Shown here: positions 4,458 through 58,227 of the stretch, in pieces
Position numbering within the stretch: the first letter of the stretch is position 1
How the letters are laid out: each line of letters begins with the position of its first letter
Source: Candidatus Gastranaerophilales bacterium
GTDB taxonomy: Bacteria; Cyanobacteriota; Vampirovibrionia; Gastranaerophilales; Gastranaerophilaceae
Length of the DNA stretch: 64,000 bases
NCBI GenBank assembly: GCA_944322885.1
Contig: CALUQH010000003.1
Location: 62,001 to 126,000 of the forward strand
Direction: 5' to 3'
Position numbers and translations under genes: made by a program
Notes under the pieces: generated by a model
Databases searched by the model: none
Told to the model about the DNA's origin: nothing
Seen by the model: only the letters and a program-made list of their open reading frames with translations

Positions 4458-6338
4458 ATGAATGAAAAATACATACCTTTATACAGAAAATACCGCCCGC
4501 AAAGGTTAGAAGAAGTTGTCGGGCAGGAACATATTAAAAAAGCTTTAAAAAACGCGATTGAACTTAATAAAATTTCTCATGCATATCTTTTTACGGGGCC
4601 AAGGGGTACCGGAAAAACTTCTACCGCCCGTATTTTTGCTAAATCTCTGAACTGTAAAGAGGGGCCGACAATCAATCCTTGCGGAGTTTGCGAAAATTGT
4701 ATTGATATCACAAATTCAACTCCAATGGATGTTATAGAAATTGATGCAGCAAGTAACAGAAAAGTCGAAGATGCGCAAAATATTCTTGAAAAGGTTATGT
4801 ATGCTCCTGTTAACAGCAGGTATAAGATTTATATTATAGACGAAGTTCACATGCTTTCTACGACAGCGTTTAACGCACTTTTGAAAACTCTTGAAGAACC
4901 GCCGAAAAATGTTATTTTCATACTTGCTACGACAGAAGTTCATAAAGTCCTTGATACGATAAAAAGCCGCTGCCAGAGGTTTGATTTTAAGCGTATTACA
5001 ACAGATGACATTGTAAAGCATCTGAGATATATTGCTGATAACGAAAAGATTAATATTACAGATGATGCACTTTTTACAATTGCGAAAAATTCTGCTGGCG
5101 GAATGCGCGACAGTATTGCCCTGCTTGATCAGTTAAGTGTTCTTGATGGTGATGAGGCTATTTCAACTGATGATATAAACAATCTTCTCGGGCGTCTTTC
5201 ATTTGATACGTTAAATTCTCTTGCGGACAAAATTGTTAATTCAAAACCGCAGGAGGCTATTGAAGAGTTGGAAAAGATTTACAACTCGGGTAATGAGCCT
5301 GTACAAATTCTCACTAATTTGATGGATTATCTGAAAAATCTGCTAATTGTTAAAAATTGCAGAAAAGAAATAGTGTTTGAATTAACTCAGGCTAACGATG
5401 CACAGGTTAAAGCTATGACAGCGCAGTCTGAAAATATTGAAACTCATCAGATTGTTTTTCTTATTGATAAATGCTCTGAATATATTAAAGAGTTAAAACT
5501 TACTAATAATCCGCGTTTGTGGCTTGAAGTTGCAATAATTGACCTTGCAAATCTAACTGAAAATACATCTCTGCTGGAACTTCAAAATAGAATTGCAAGA
5601 TTAGAAAGCGGAAATGTTCAACCTGTTAAAGTTTCTGCTTATAAAACAGCTCCAGCCCCTGTTATGAAGTCTGAAATGCAAAGGACAGAACATGCAAAAC
5701 CGGATATAGTCTTGCATAAAGAAGAAGAAAAGGTTCAAGCGACGGAGAAGCCTCAAGAAAAAGAGCCTGTTTCTTCTGAACCAAAGGCTGAAAGTGCTCA
5801 CAATACAGATGATTTTTCACCGATGCCGATGTCAAAACACTCTGACGGAGCTGATATTGCTGTTTTGTGGGGAAGACTGCTTGATAATGTGCACAGTGCT
5901 CCAACACGTGCATTACTGAAACAATGGGCTAATCCTGTTAAAATTGAGCCTGATGAAACAGTTTTGACAATGAAAAATGAGATTTTCTTAAATCAGGTTC
6001 AAAGCGGTTCTAAAAAACAGGCAGTTGTTGATGCTGTTAATTCTTTGTTCTCACAGGAAAATTCAAATGTGGTTATAAGGCTTCCTCATGCCGATGATAT
6101 TCAGATAAAACCGGTTCAGCCTGCCACGAAGAATATAGAAGCACCTAAACCAAAGCCTTCACCGGTTATGAAATCTGTTCAAATGGAGCCAGAGGTTTCT
6201 TCAGATGAAGTAGAAGAATTGAAAGAAGATGTTCAGACCAACGTAGAGTCCGAAAGTGCATCAAAAATTACCAATTCTTTACATTCTGATAATGTAAATA
6301 TGGTAATTGATGTATTTGAAGGTAAAGTTATTGATTAA
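4458..6338 (+). CDS. dnaX: DNA polymerase III subunit gamma/tau
   Basis: This is the clamp-loader ATPase that loads the beta sliding clamp and organises the replisome. The N-terminal AAA+ region shows Walker A GPRGTGKTS (47-55), a four-cysteine zinc site (C66, C75, C78, C81), Walker B DEVH (128-131) and the SRCQRF sensor/arginine-finger region. After about residue 380 a low-complexity Pro/Glu/Lys/Val linker leads into a helical tau-like C-terminal part (about 450-545) and a second acidic linker. The 626-residue length fits a full tau form. I saw no convincing slippery site for making gamma by frameshift. The ATG has a TATAAT six bases upstream and no ribosome site. A small gene follows after only ten bases. 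Confidence 0.95.
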   Translation: MNEKYIPLYRKYRPQRLEEVVGQEHIKKALKNAIELNKISHAYLFTGPRGTGKTSTARIFAKSLNCKEGPTINPCGVCENCIDITNSTPMDVIEIDAASNRKVEDAQNILEKVMYAPVNSRYKIYIIDEVHMLSTTAFNALLKTLEEPPKNVIFILATTEVHKVLDTIKSRCQRFDFKRITTDDIVKHLRYIADNEKINITDDALFTIAKNSAGGMRDSIALLDQLSVLDGDEAISTDDINNLLGRLSFDTLNSLADKIVNSKPQEAIEELEKIYNSGNEPVQILTNLMDYLKNLLIVKNCRKEIVFELTQANDAQVKAMTAQSENIETHQIVFLIDKCSEYIKELKLTNNPRLWLEVAIIDLANLTENTSLLELQNRIARLESGNVQPVKVSAYKTAPAPVMKSEMQRTEHAKPDIVLHKEEEKVQATEKPQEKEPVSSEPKAESAHNTDDFSPMPMSKHSDGADIAVLWGRLLDNVHSAPTRALLKQWANPVKIEPDETVLTMKNEIFLNQVQSGSKKQAVVDAVNSLFSQENSNVVIRLPHADDIQIKPVQPATKNIEAPKPKPSPVMKSVQMEPEVSSDEVEELKEDVQTNVESESASKITNSLHSDNVNMVIDVFEGKVID

Positions 6339-6348
6339 GGAGTTAAAT

Positions 6349-6699
6349 GTGAAAATTCAAAACATAAATTCTGTTAATTTTGGCAAATATAATATAACGT
6401 CTAAAGTAGAGTCAGGCGAAGAAGATTTTAGATACTTATCTGAAAATAACAAATTACTTGTTATTTATGATATGCTACAGGAGCAAAAAGAGACTTTGCA
6501 TAGTTTATCAAACAAGCAGTATGACAGCCAGGAAGAGTTAAAAAATGATTTAAAGAAATTATCTTTAAATCAGCAAAAAATGCATAAATCAGCAATGCAG
6601 GCAGCAATTTGGATGTCATCACAAGCAAAATTTAATGACACTGCAGATGCAATAAGCGATCAATTATATTATGGCAAAAAAATTGATATTGTAGGCTAA
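6349..6699 (+). CDS. Small lineage-specific protein with N-terminal VNFGK motif
   Basis: Function unknown. The start chosen is GTG, because AAGGAG lies seven bases before it and an ATG two bases earlier runs straight into a stop. The product (116 residues) begins with a short polar stretch ending in NSVNFGK and continues as a Gln/Lys/Glu-rich, mostly helical protein (about 35-90 predicted coiled coil). It has no signal peptide or membrane segment. It follows dnaX by ten bases and is probably co-transcribed. The N-terminal Asn-x-x-Phe-Gly pattern resembles that of four other small proteins in the window. Confidence 0.75.
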   Translation: MKIQNINSVNFGKYNITSKVESGEEDFRYLSENNKLLVIYDMLQEQKETLHSLSNKQYDSQEELKNDLKKLSLNQQKMHKSAMQAAIWMSSQAKFNDTADAISDQLYYGKKIDIVG

Positions 6700-25745: not shown

Positions 25746-26150
25746 TTACATTTTTCTGAAAATGTCTTCATATGTGTCAGCTTCAAATAGCCTTATTTTC
25801 GAAGCTTGTTTATCCGCAATTTTTGCGATTTTTTCAATAAATCCTACTGGACCTTGGAACAATTTTGTAAAAGCATTTTCTCTATAATTTTTAAAGAATG
25901 CAAAGGTTAGGGAATCATCTTTATCTAATGAATATACATTAGCAGTTAAAGTTTTTCCATCAGGCATAATCATAAGATTTATGTCTACTTTATCATTTTT
26001 TGCCTGTTGTTCAACTATTTTATTAAGTTTTTCTAATTCAGAAGTTTTTTTAATTCGTGCCTTAAGAGCTTTATTAACAACTTCATTTGAATGTATTGCC
26101 ATTCCGAAATTCGGTTGATTTGATGTGTGTGTGTTTATGCCTATATTCAT
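25746..26150 (-). CDS. Small lineage-specific protein with N-terminal PNFGM motif
   Basis: Function unknown. The 134-residue product opens MNIGINTHTSNQPNFGMAI, a polar Asn/Thr-rich lead ending in Asn-Phe-Gly, then a basic helical segment (KALKARIKKTSELEKLNKI). A beta stretch with MIMPDGKTLTANVYSL follows, and a final helical part. It has no signal peptide by classical criteria. AAAAGGAG precedes the ATG at good spacing. A copy of the shared AT-rich element begins 19 bases upstream, linking it to the glycine-zipper, EF-hand and other unexplained genes. Confidence 0.8.
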   Translation of the reverse strand: MNIGINTHTSNQPNFGMAIHSNEVVNKALKARIKKTSELEKLNKIVEQQAKNDKVDINLMIMPDGKTLTANVYSLDKDDSLTFAFFKNYRENAFTKLFQGPVGFIEKIAKIADKQASKIRLFEADTYEDIFRKM

Positions 26151-28642: not shown

Positions 28643-29086
28643 ATGATTTCAAAAATTACAGTTACCCCGACGGCATCTTTTGCTGTTAAAAATTCTTTTA
28701 ATTTCTATCAAAATAGAAATAATTCCGTTGCAAATGTCAATTCGGGATTAGATAAGGATACTGTTTCTTTTACCGGGAAAAAAAATCAGCGTATTATTTC
28801 TAAGGTTGTTGATAAAGCTTTTAAAAAACTCTCGACATATCAGTTAAAAACAAAAAATAATTTGAAAATGTTTGGAACAAAATCAGGTGAAGTAAATGTT
28901 CTTATTCAAGAAAATGTTTTAGGAAAAGAAGCAAGATTAACTTTGAGTAACGGTGATTTTAAAGGTGGTTCTTTTTTAAACTTTGATTTAAAACGTTCAA
29001 CAGGTGAAAAATCAAAAATTACTCCCGTTGATTCTGATATGTCTGCTTCAGAGGCTGCAAAATTAATAAAACGTTATTTGAAATAA
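28643..29086 (+). CDS. Small lineage-specific protein with N-terminal VSFTGKK motif
   Basis: Function unknown. The 147-residue basic protein has an Asn/Thr/Ser-rich leader (KNSFNFYQNRNNSVANVNSG) followed by DTVSFTGKKNQR. After that come a helical segment and a beta-rich C-terminal part with NVLIQENVLGKEARLTLSNG. There is no hydrophobic signal peptide. AAAGAGGA lies upstream of the ATG. The S-F-T-G motif at the leader boundary recalls the N-F-G or A-F-T motif in four other small proteins here. Confidence 0.75.
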   Translation: MISKITVTPTASFAVKNSFNFYQNRNNSVANVNSGLDKDTVSFTGKKNQRIISKVVDKAFKKLSTYQLKTKNNLKMFGTKSGEVNVLIQENVLGKEARLTLSNGDFKGGSFLNFDLKRSTGEKSKITPVDSDMSASEAAKLIKRYLK

Positions 29087-54835: not shown

Positions 54836-55384
54836 TTATAATTTACCGCTTTTTACTTCATCTAAAAATTCATTAAAAGAAACTTTTTTTGCATTATTTT
54901 TTTCTAAAAAGTTTTTGAATTGAGGTAATTTTTTGTCAGCAAAATTTTTCATAACCAATGATCTGATTAAGTGTTTCGGACATTCTGAAACACCTTTGAA
55001 GATACTTTTGTTACAGGTAAGATAAGCGGGTAAAAAAGAAAATAGAAAGTCTTTTATAGTTTTACGCGTATATTTAGCCTTATCTTTGCCGGTCATTACA
55101 ATTATCGGAAGCTGTTTTATTTTTTCAATATCAACCAAACCGTATTTTTGAGCATTTAAAAATGCCCATCTTGTAGATGTCCTTTCTTCTTTTCCAATTT
55201 TTATTAATGAATTTTGAAAAGCTGCATGGTGGAATGATTCTGCTCGGATAATTAAATTTTTCGAACAGAAATCTTTGAATTCGTTAACAAATTTTACATA
55301 CTGTTCAGGTTTGCTTTCAACAATTCTTATTGAAGTAAACCCCGGATTATACCTATTTGGATTATTATAATTAACTGTTATCAT
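54836..55384 (-). CDS. Lineage-specific protein with N-terminal NPGFTS motif
   Basis: Function unknown. The 182-residue product starts MITVNYNNPNRYNPGFTSIR, an Asn/Tyr/Pro-rich leader ending in Gly-Phe-Thr. It continues as a basic alpha/beta protein with RIVESKPEQYVKFVNEFKDF, an IIVMTGKDKAKYT strand and Lys/Asn-rich helices. It has no signal peptide or transmembrane helix. The start was taken at the ATG following AAAGAA; an upstream in-frame start adds only three residues. The leader motif matches those of other small proteins here. Confidence 0.75.
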   Translation of the reverse strand: MITVNYNNPNRYNPGFTSIRIVESKPEQYVKFVNEFKDFCSKNLIIRAESFHHAAFQNSLIKIGKEERTSTRWAFLNAQKYGLVDIEKIKQLPIIVMTGKDKAKYTRKTIKDFLFSFLPAYLTCNKSIFKGVSECPKHLIRSLVMKNFADKKLPQFKNFLEKNNAKKVSFNEFLDEVKSGKL

Positions 55385-56962: not shown

Positions 56963-57844
56963 ATGAAAAAATTTCTTGAAAAATTCTCTAACAGCGAAAA
57001 ATTCGCCGGTTGGGTATTTATTCTGCCGGCCTTGGCAGGAACATTTATTTTTATTATTATTCCTGTAATTTGTTCTTTTGGGCTAAGTTTTACTAAGTGG
57101 GATTTGCTAAATCCTATTAAATTTGTGGGATTGGAAAATTACAAATTATTATTTCAAGAACAATTATTTTATAAAATATTATTAAATACAGTTATTTTTG
57201 CCATGTCTACATCAATTTTGGGCGTTATAATTCCGTTAATTTTAGCCTGTATTTTAAACTCTAAAATAAGAGGCTCGGAATTTTATAAAACTGCATATTT
57301 TCTTCCGTTCATTACACCTATGATTGTAATAGGTGTTGTATGGGAATGGATATTTGACCCTAATATAGGAATACTTAATCATTTATTAAATTTACATATA
57401 AACTGGCTTTATGATACTCATTTTGCAATGCCTGCATTGATAATTGTTTCAGTATGGAAGCTTATAGGATACAACATGGTGATATTTTTAAGTTCCTTGA
57501 GTACAATATCACAAAGTATGTTTGAGGCTGCTAAAATTGACGGTGCAACTCCGGCTCAGACTTTTATTAATGTAACTGTACCGCTTCTGTCACCAAGCAT
57601 ATTTTTCGTCGTAATAATTACGGCCATAAGTTCATTTCAGATATTTGATTTAATATATTTGATGACTCAGGGTGGACCTTTGGACAGTACAAATGTTCTT
57701 GTATATTCAATATACAAAAATGCTTTTGAATATTTTAACGTAGGCAAAGCTTCCGCTATTGCCTACGTTTTATTCATAATTATCCTCGTATTAACTCTTT
57801 TCCAATGGTCATTGCGTAAAAGACTTGTATACAATGAAGATTAA
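56963..57844 (+). CDS. Sugar ABC transporter permease (MalF/UgpA type)
   Basis: A 293-residue inner-membrane permease with six helices. It shows the EAA loop EAAKIDGATPAQTFINVTVP that docks on the ATPase and the early SFTKWDLLNPIKFVGLENYK signature of carbohydrate uptake permeases. The start MKKFLEKFSN follows TATAAT by six bases; a TTG further upstream lies in the promoter. The usual partners (second permease, binding protein, ATPase) are not adjacent, so it is an orphan gene here. The 3' end overlaps the convergent small gene by four bases. Confidence 0.9.
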   Translation: MKKFLEKFSNSEKFAGWVFILPALAGTFIFIIIPVICSFGLSFTKWDLLNPIKFVGLENYKLLFQEQLFYKILLNTVIFAMSTSILGVIIPLILACILNSKIRGSEFYKTAYFLPFITPMIVIGVVWEWIFDPNIGILNHLLNLHINWLYDTHFAMPALIIVSVWKLIGYNMVIFLSSLSTISQSMFEAAKIDGATPAQTFINVTVPLLSPSIFFVVIITAISSFQIFDLIYLMTQGGPLDSTNVLVYSIYKNAFEYFNVGKASAIAYVLFIIILVLTLFQWSLRKRLVYNED

Positions 57845-58227
57845 ACGTTTATATCTGATGTATAATTTTTCATTATATCATTTGCAGATATGTTTTCTTT
57901 GACATTCCCGCCTATGAGTTTTCTAAATTTTGCACCTAATGTGCCAAGATCTAAAATACCATTGAATGATGCCTCTGCTGGATTTTGTGCGGTCGAATTA
58001 TATACAGATTTTTTACCCATTGTAAAATTTGAGAATACATGTCCGTTGTTTGCACCGTGCACAATTAAAATATCGCCTTCGTTAGCTTTTTTAATATTAT
58101 TCAATGCACTATCAAGTGCTCTTAGCTGTTTGGTATTTGCAGCATAGTCAACAACTTCTTTAAAAGCTTTGTTAGGGATAAATTTTGCAGTAAATGCGGG
58201 GTGGTTACATTTTTTAGAAATTTCCAT
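57841..58227 (-). CDS. Small lineage-specific protein with N-terminal AFTAKF motif
   Basis: Function unknown. The 128-residue product begins MEISKKCNHPAFTAKFIPN, again a short polar leader ending in a Phe-Thr pair. A helix (KEVVDYAANTKQLRALDSAL) follows, then beta segments with LIVHGANNGHVFSNFTMGK and a C-terminal GTLGAKFRKLIGGN. No signal peptide. AAGGAGG precedes the ATG at good spacing. The upstream DNA holds a faint G-C-A-A start of the AT-rich element, too diverged to call. It is divergent from the 46-residue small ORF. Confidence 0.77.
   Translation of the reverse strand: MEISKKCNHPAFTAKFIPNKAFKEVVDYAANTKQLRALDSALNNIKKANEGDILIVHGANNGHVFSNFTMGKKSVYNSTAQNPAEASFNGILDLGTLGAKFRKLIGGNVKENISANDIMKNYTSDINV

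What the first reader, a model, noticed from the sequence alone, without database searches (positions are those of the whole stretch)
25746..26150. A family of small proteins shares a polar N-terminal leader ending in Asn/Ser/Ala-Phe-Gly/Thr
Unrelated small proteins at 6349 (NSVNFGK), 25746 (NQPNFGM), 28643 (DTVSFTGKK), 54836 (NPGFTS) and 57841 (NHPAFTAKF) all carry a Phe-Gly or Phe-Thr motif. It lies within about the first 10-45 residues, after an Asn-rich leader, with different bodies behind it. No classical signal peptide is present. A conserved short leader on different cargo suggests a targeting or secretion signal not previously named.
Basis: partly seen in the sequence, partly recalled or inferred. 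Interest (0 to 1): 0.7.

Follow-up and report, generated by a model that had tools for sequence, protein, structure and literature searches.

The report
Shared N-terminal leader in Gastranaerophilales proteins
In this group of gut bacteria (non-photosynthetic relatives of cyanobacteria), many unrelated lineage-specific proteins carry the same kind of short Asn/Ser-rich N-terminal leader ending in a Phe-x-Gly motif, which looks like an undescribed sorting or export tag, possibly for a flagellum-derived secretion machine kept by these non-flagellated cells.

Summary
All five named proteins are real genes. In each family the leader varies across relatives while the Phe motif is kept, and no sequence relationship was detected between the bodies. 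The motif is better written [I/V/P/N]-[N/S/T/A]-F-[T/S/K/Q/G]-[G/A/S], usually after a start such as M-[K/Q]-[I/V]-[N/Q/S]. In about 1,190 Gastranaerophilales genes outside the window, [NSPTVIAQ]F[TSKNRQ]G is 2.2-fold denser in residues 5-64 than internally (p=1.6e-5; z=5.5 against shuffled N-termini). Replacing F by Y, L or I, in a closely related form of the pattern, removes the excess. A DTVSF[ST]G-type DNA pattern is about 5-fold over its control in 193 genomes of the order, but 0.5-2.5-fold in other families of the class. What the leader does is not shown. The best-supported guess is an export signal for a second, flagellum-derived type III secretion system: its FlhA occurs throughout the order, including the window's own genus, where no flagellin was found in 13 genomes tested. 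The link is inferred and confounded with phylogeny, and rival targeting roles remain open. No prior description was found in the literature searched.

The parts
25746..26150 (-). 134-aa protein P0001; leader MNIGINTHTSNQ, motif PNFGMA (residues 13-18)
   Evidence: 22 of 97 genomes searched have a match; leader variable, [NQS]FG[M/A/K] kept
26097..26114 (-). motif PNFGMA of the 25746 protein
   Evidence: sequence read directly
6349..6699 (+). 116-aa protein from GTG 6349: MKIQNINSVNFGK...; motif VNFGK at 6373-6387
   Evidence: orthologues start MKIQNINSVNFGK with ATG
28643..29086 (+). 147-aa protein P0003; long-leader type, motif DTVSFTGK (residues 39-46) at 28757-28780
   Evidence: the D-x-V-S-F motif recurs at residues 34-39 of unrelated proteins
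54836..55384 (-). 182-aa protein from ATG 55384: MITVNYNNPNRYNPGFTSIRIV; motif PGFTSI at 55328-55345
   Evidence: homologues NFTSIRVV, NFTAIRIV, SFNGIRIV
57841..58227 (-). 128-aa protein P0005; leader MEISKKCNH, motif PAFTAKF at 58180-58200
   Evidence: homologues SSFTAKF, PSFSGKF, PAFNARF, TAFGMKF

Best explanation
A bipartite N-terminal sorting leader of the order Gastranaerophilales: M-[K/Q/E]-[I/V] start, an Asn/Ser/Gln-rich and acid-poor (probably disordered) spacer of about 5-50 residues, then a Phe-centred motif [I/V/P/N]-[N/S/T/A]-F-[T/S/K/Q/G]-[G/A/S], fixed to a few percent of genes that are mostly lineage-specific and otherwise unrelated. Its existence and enrichment are shown. Inferred: it is an export signal read by a second flagellum-derived type III secretion system (FliF, FliE, FliH, FlhA, FlgB/FlgC and FlgF/G-like rod proteins, a transglycosylase), kept throughout the order and present without flagellin in the window's genus. 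By analogy with early flagellar substrates, the Phe motif would dock at the export gate (FlhB-C, FlhA-C, or the separate soluble FlhA-C-like protein found alongside), and the hydrophobic start would then engage the gate.
For: Motif real and N-terminal. Restricted to the order: DNA pattern for D-[ST]-[VI]-S-F-x-[GA] over its reversed control is 510:109 in 188 Gastranaerophilaceae and 16:3 in 5 genomes of other families of the order, against 232:148 in 50 f8 genomes (FlhA absent in the two tested), 2:4 in 3 f13 genomes (FlhA absent in the two tested) and 30:12 in f9+f14. T3SS: FlhA in all 80 Gastranaerophilales genomes tested; the second type is 76-78% identical between families and 64-66% to f9/f14, while flagellar FlhA is only 38% identical to it. 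Conserved operon; flagellin absent in all 13 own-genus genomes tested although FlhA is present in each. Known T3SS substrates look alike: a flagellar FliK in the order (PF02120) starts MSVLSESNILDLSFKAFSS, and a FlgM from another phylum (PF04316) has DTVNFSA with F at residue 43, as in P0003. Carriers avoid Sec-like starts; one with an EF-hand/LysM body starts MSEKINFGQ; bodies are Cys-poor. The layout parallels the hydrophobic N-terminal signal plus gate recognition motif of early flagellar subunits (PMC8983047).
Against: No direct evidence of export or of binding to the T3SS. The clade distribution is confounded with phylogeny, and families f10-f12, whose tested genomes have an FlhA, show only weak enrichment (ratio 1.9 for f10, f11, f12 and f15 pooled). 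A hydrophobic residue at +4, which I recalled as part of the gate recognition motif (Fxxx-phi), is not enriched (0.38 vs 0.38), and many F positions (8-20) are closer to the start than the 26 or more residues needed in Salmonella. Rod proteins of the second system do not carry the motif. FliPQR and FlhB of the second system were not found in the sampled part of the own genome.
Confidence: 0.4

Rival explanations
1. The leader is a docking tag for another destination: an intracellular scaffold or compartment, a different secretion or pilus system, or the inner membrane. The T3SS merely shares the clade.
For: Some carriers have enzyme-like bodies (aldose epimerase, AAA ATPase, HD, alpha/beta hydrolase) that could work inside the cell. 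Many F positions are too close to the start for a Salmonella-type early signal, and +4 is not hydrophobic-enriched. The organism also has many type IV pilin-like genes.
Against: No scaffold or shell candidate was found, but none was searched for. A leader on FliK and a similar motif in FlgM fit flagellar-type export better.
Confidence: 0.35
2. The leader is a mobile or shared N-terminal module spread by gene fusion or recombination, with no sorting role.
For: Very short motif; a 13-residue stretch 69% identical between P0003 and L156:13085.
Against: Leader spacers are not homologous between families. Within families the motif is the conserved part while the spacer drifts, which neutral hitch-hiking would not give.
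Confidence: 0.1
3. Chance or composition: FG/FT near N-termini of Asn-rich, AT-rich proteins.
For: The loosest pattern [NSA]F[GT] is only mildly enriched in the first sample, and early pattern sets gave p=0.03-0.3.
Against: z=5.5 against composition-preserving shuffles; flat Y/L/I controls for the related four-residue form; internal rates half as high; 62% of M[QK][IV][NQS] starters carry the wide motif against 14%; about 5-fold over control across 193 genomes, far less elsewhere.
Confidence: 0.05

Closest known systems
Early flagellar T3SS substrates (FlgD/FlgE/FlgG): hydrophobic N-terminal signal plus gate recognition motif (PMC8983047)
   Same: Short N-terminal signal, hydrophobic residue near the start, polar spacer, Phe/hydrophobic-centred second element, no shared body
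   Different: Here the second element is F-x-[G/A/S], +4 is not hydrophobic-enriched, the spacer is often shorter than 26 residues, and cargo are lineage-specific proteins, not rod/hook subunits
FlgM (exported anti-sigma-28 factor, PF04316)
   Same: One FlgM (L260) has an MNI start, a polar leader and DTVNFSA with F at residue 43, like P0003 (F43)
   Different: Bodies unrelated; in FlgM this element starts the Pfam domain; only two FlgM-like sequences were examined; leader proteins do not match PF04316
Non-flagellar T3SS / injectisomes (Abby and Rocha 2012, PMC3459982; title and abstract only)
   Same: Flagellum-derived export apparatus kept without a filament; many small lineage-specific candidate substrates
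   Different: Rod and MS-ring genes remain flagellar type; no needle, secretin or translocator was identified (not searched systematically)
Sec/Tat signal peptides, lipoprotein and type IV pilin leaders
   Same: N-terminal sorting leaders
   Different: No n-region/h-region, no hydrophobic core; M[KR][KR] starts are depleted among carriers

Membership tests
Early flagellar T3SS export signal (GRM plus N-terminal hydrophobic signal) | hydrophobic or small non-polar residue(s) at the extreme N-terminus | tested here: met
   M[QK][IV][NQS] starts strongly associated with the motif, 13/21 vs 165/1215, p=5e-7
Early flagellar T3SS export signal (GRM plus N-terminal hydrophobic signal) | second element Fxxx-phi (hydrophobic at +4; definition recalled, not confirmed in the paper text) | tested here: not met
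   +4 hydrophobic 39/102 N-terminal vs 198/524 internal, p=0.5
Early flagellar T3SS export signal (GRM plus N-terminal hydrophobic signal) | at least about 26 residues between the two elements | tested here: not met
   27 of 59 strict carriers have F before residue 20 (requirement from PMC8983047)
Early flagellar T3SS export signal (GRM plus N-terminal hydrophobic signal) | export through, and binding to, FlhB-C | not testable with these tools
   needs experiment
T3SS substrate in general | a T3SS export apparatus in the same genomes | tested here: met
   FlhA in all 80 Gastranaerophilales genomes tested; FliF/FliE/FliH/FlhA operon
T3SS substrate in general | complete export gate (FliPQR-FlhB) in the own genome | tested here: inconclusive
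   only part of the own genome sampled; not found there
T3SS substrate in general | motif absent where T3SS is absent | tested here: inconclusive
   f8 ratio 1.6 and f13 ratio 0.5 vs about 5 in the order; 0/7 polar leaders of the right start class by my reading; confounded with phylogeny, and FlhA tested in two genomes of each family only
Sec/Tat/lipoprotein signal peptide | basic n-region plus hydrophobic core | tested here: not met
   carriers counted only among genes without a hydrophobic N-terminus; M[KR][KR] starts depleted (2/50); the five window leaders have no hydrophobic core
FlgM family | PF04316 domain | tested here: not met
   no FlgM match in the five window proteins or in the other carriers scanned

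The most novel reading that the evidence does not exclude
Non-flagellated gut Gastranaerophilales have turned an ancestral second flagellar export apparatus into a general protein secretion machine, and the F-x-G leader marks its whole repertoire of tens of lineage-specific exported proteins and enzymes, a secretome that Sec/Tat-based annotation misses entirely.
Probability: 0.35. Interest if true: 0.85.

Novelty: new variant of a known kind. Interest (0 to 1): 0.6.

Why it matters
If it is a sorting signal, a few percent of the genes of a whole order of gut bacteria, nearly all unannotated, can be grouped by one sequence feature and assigned a common destination. If that destination is the T3SS, it explains why non-motile Gastranaerophilales keep the incomplete flagella gene sets noted by Soo et al. 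2014 (PMC4040986), and it would give one of the few recognisable consensus leaders for flagellar-type export, where substrates are said to share no common peptide sequence (PMC8983047).

Tried and rejected
(1) Chance/composition: rejected. (2) Gate recognition motif Fxxx-phi as the exact identity: rejected, +4 not hydrophobic-enriched. (3) DNA patterns for the whole bipartite leader: too few hits to be useful. (4) Window protein 23973 (VDFDGRK) as a sixth member: rejected, the same-genus relative has VDFDTRK. (5) Glucose-6-phosphate isomerase-like L113:13807 as cargo: rejected by eye, since 'VKFSGIDFSG' sits where other isomerases have ordinary N-terminal sequence (recalled comparison). (6) Excess of [IVP][NSTA]F[..][GAS] at N-termini in flagellar loci of other phyla: mostly one repeated family, a FliN/FliY-like protein (IGNISFGS), plus FlgM. 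(7) Structure prediction of P0005 and P0001 without alignment: pLDDT 37 and 43, meaningless, so no fold search. (9) Unbiased residue-pair enrichment: dominated by CxxC, noise ORFs and composition.

Full report
WHAT WAS CHECKED. The window is a 64-kb piece of a 1.86-Mb, 35% GC genome (G000:C3:62001-126000). Its relatives are named Candidatus Gastranaerophilales in public records (FlhA 90-100% identical to records of that name). The one at 6349 begins at a GTG with a good Shine-Dalgarno match; its orthologues begin MKIQNINSVNFGK with ATG. None of the five has a Pfam match above cut-off.

WITHIN-FAMILY CONSERVATION. Homologues of the five were searched in 58-97 genomes and their N-termini extracted. 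In every family the leader drifts in length and sequence while the Phe motif stays. 25746 family: MQVNLNTQKNNRPNFGMAIH, MQISSNNKQNFGMAIH, MKTNLNCNCPKPQFGMAIH, MKINSTSPSFGKTHIN. 57841 family: MEISKKCNHPAFTAKFI, MTISKTCNHPSFSGKFI, MQIQQTNLNQTAFGMKFI, MEIQKTNFASNHTSFGMRFI, MKIEKRCYTPNFNAKFI. 28643 family: spacer of about 35 variable residues, then D[TSM]VSF[TS][GSA] in most members. 54836 family: NFTSIRV, NFTAIRI, SFNGIRI, VNFTGIYKI. 6349 family: VNFGK, QNFGK, IFGN. The element is therefore F-x-[G/A/S] (or F-G-x), not simply FG or FT.

BEYOND THE WINDOW. Genes were called with a simple script on samples of the own genome and of seven relatives. Many unrelated proteins of 70 to 1,100 residues carry the same leader. 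Examples: MQISAVNPSFQGSR (298 aa), MQVSNNNKYTPNFQAIP (204 aa), MAIHQITSFNGYY (258 aa), MNIQAISSINFRGN (308 aa), MKIQNIP...NINFKGF (554 aa), MQVNFN...SPSFRGN (261 aa). In 1,190 genes outside the window, [NSPTVIAQ]F[TSKNRQ]G occurs 53 times in residues 5-64 (0.74 per 1000) against 0.34 per 1000 internally (p=1.6e-5), and against 26.1+-4.9 in shuffled N-termini (z=5.5). The related form [NSPT]F[TSKNRQG][GAS] has ratio 1.73 (p=1.1e-4), and the same form with Y, L or I in place of F has ratios of 0.89-1.05. The tighter form [IVP][NSTA]F[TSKRQNG][GAS] is 3.8- to 4.4-fold enriched in the own genus and family; in that tighter form the L and I controls are also mildly raised in some sets. It is absent from 235 genes with homologues outside the order and present in 29 of 1001 others (p=0.002), against 4 of 715 internal segments (p=2e-4). 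That form was refined after looking at the data, so these last p-values are optimistic. The first, loose patterns gave only weak signals.

BIPARTITE ARCHITECTURE. Genes starting M[QK][IV][NQS] carry the wide motif in 13 of 21 cases, against 165 of 1215 others (p=5e-7); Sec-like M[KR][KR] starters do so in 2 of 50. The spacer is rich in N/Q/S/T (36% vs 22%) and poor in acids (5% vs 12.5%). The F falls in two position classes, mostly residues 10-19 and 25-49. The bodies are poorer in Cys and acids and richer in Lys/Arg than other non-conserved genes. In the long class, D[TSY][VI]SF[STG] recurs at residues 34-39 of proteins of 147, 219, 419, 535 and 562 aa. D.[VI][SNT]F[STGKNRQ] occurs 13 times in N-termini and twice internally (22-fold, p=2e-7; includes a few housekeeping-like hits). 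All-against-all blastp of 23 own-genome carriers found no homology of the window proteins beyond the motif; one pair of other carriers has a weak 39-residue match.

TAXONOMIC RANGE. The reversed control does not respect codon structure, so ratios near 1.5-2 are probably baseline. FlhA was absent in the two f8 and two f13 genomes tested. In the FlhA-less genomes, genes of the same start class are mostly hydrophobic signal-like sequences, and in my reading none of the 7 has a polar leader with the motif. The automatic motif count there was 2 of 7, both within or next to hydrophobic stretches, against 9 of 19 in Gastranaerophilales genomes not used in the samples above.

A CANDIDATE MACHINE. An FlhA search found FlhA in every Gastranaerophilales genome tested. 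A second FlhA type is 76-78% identical across families and 64-66% identical to f9/f14, while canonical flagellar FlhA is only 38% identical to it. It sits in an operon with FliE, FliF, FliH, a transglycosylase, FlgB, FlgC and FlgF/G-like rod proteins (FlgB, FlgC, FliE and FliH assigned by eye, the others by Pfam). A separate soluble protein with only the FlhA C-terminal domain occurs as well. Flagellin is absent from all 13 own-genus genomes tested but present in flagellated relatives. Soo et al. [quoted passage not shown] the strong conservation of FlhA suggests a retained function. FliPQR and FlhB of this system were not verified in the own genome.

LINK BETWEEN LEADER AND MACHINE (inferred). 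Early flagellar subunits carry a hydrophobic N-terminal signal plus a downstream gate recognition motif (PMC8983047). The leader has the same layout. A flagellar FliK of the order (PF02120) starts MSVLSESNILDLSFKAFSS, and a FlgM from another phylum (PF04316) has DTVNFSA with F at residue 43, as in P0003. Among carriers is one with EF-hand and LysM domains starting MSEKINFGQ with no Sec signal. Against: +4 is not hydrophobic-enriched, many spacers are shorter than the 26 residues needed in Salmonella, rod proteins of the second system lack the motif, and the distribution is confounded with phylogeny. I therefore put T3SS export at about 0.4, another targeting role at about 0.35, and chance at 0.05.

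VERDICT. The interpretation as a targeting signal is plausible and partly supported. The T3SS assignment is a testable hypothesis. No earlier description was found in the open-access library, which does not hold most subscription papers.

Noticed in passing
L134:8473-18868 (genome G068); L236, L238, L239, L240, L243, L246 (named genomes); G000:C15:43525-45579: Second flagellar-type T3SS operon conserved in Gastranaerophilales, including genomes without flagellin; FlhA 76-78% identical between families.
   Followed up: partly
L228:1498-2976 (G000:C24:12707-13792), L135:13538-15019, L227: Stand-alone soluble protein of about 492 aa with only the FlhA C-terminal domain plus an N-terminal domain; seen in many genomes of the order.
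   Followed up: partly
L019:9147-11855: 902-aa glycosyltransferase-like protein (glycogen-synthase-like by eye; Pfam match below cut-off) with a 75-residue leader-type N-terminal extension ending in ITFTGG.
   Followed up: no
L188:12615-14279, L322:1513-3021, L188:14290-16041, L189:10461, L010:1060: Leader-bearing proteins of different size share a segment like 'VDLxSMVIPRTTVDF' or 'MTDTIVVPRTIFKG', possibly a membrane-insertion element.
   Followed up: no
G006:C2:248789-250095, G045:C2:20335-21530, G002:C10:8511-9384: Two or three tandem copies of the 25746-family gene in some relatives.
   Followed up: no
window 6307-6699: The ORF list places the start at TTG 6307; orthologues and the Shine-Dalgarno match put it at GTG 6349.
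   Followed up: yes
L011, L015, L125, L217 and others: Many pilin-like genes with the signature GFTLAEVLITLGIIGVVAA; they had to be excluded because FTLAE mimics the F-T motif.
   Followed up: no
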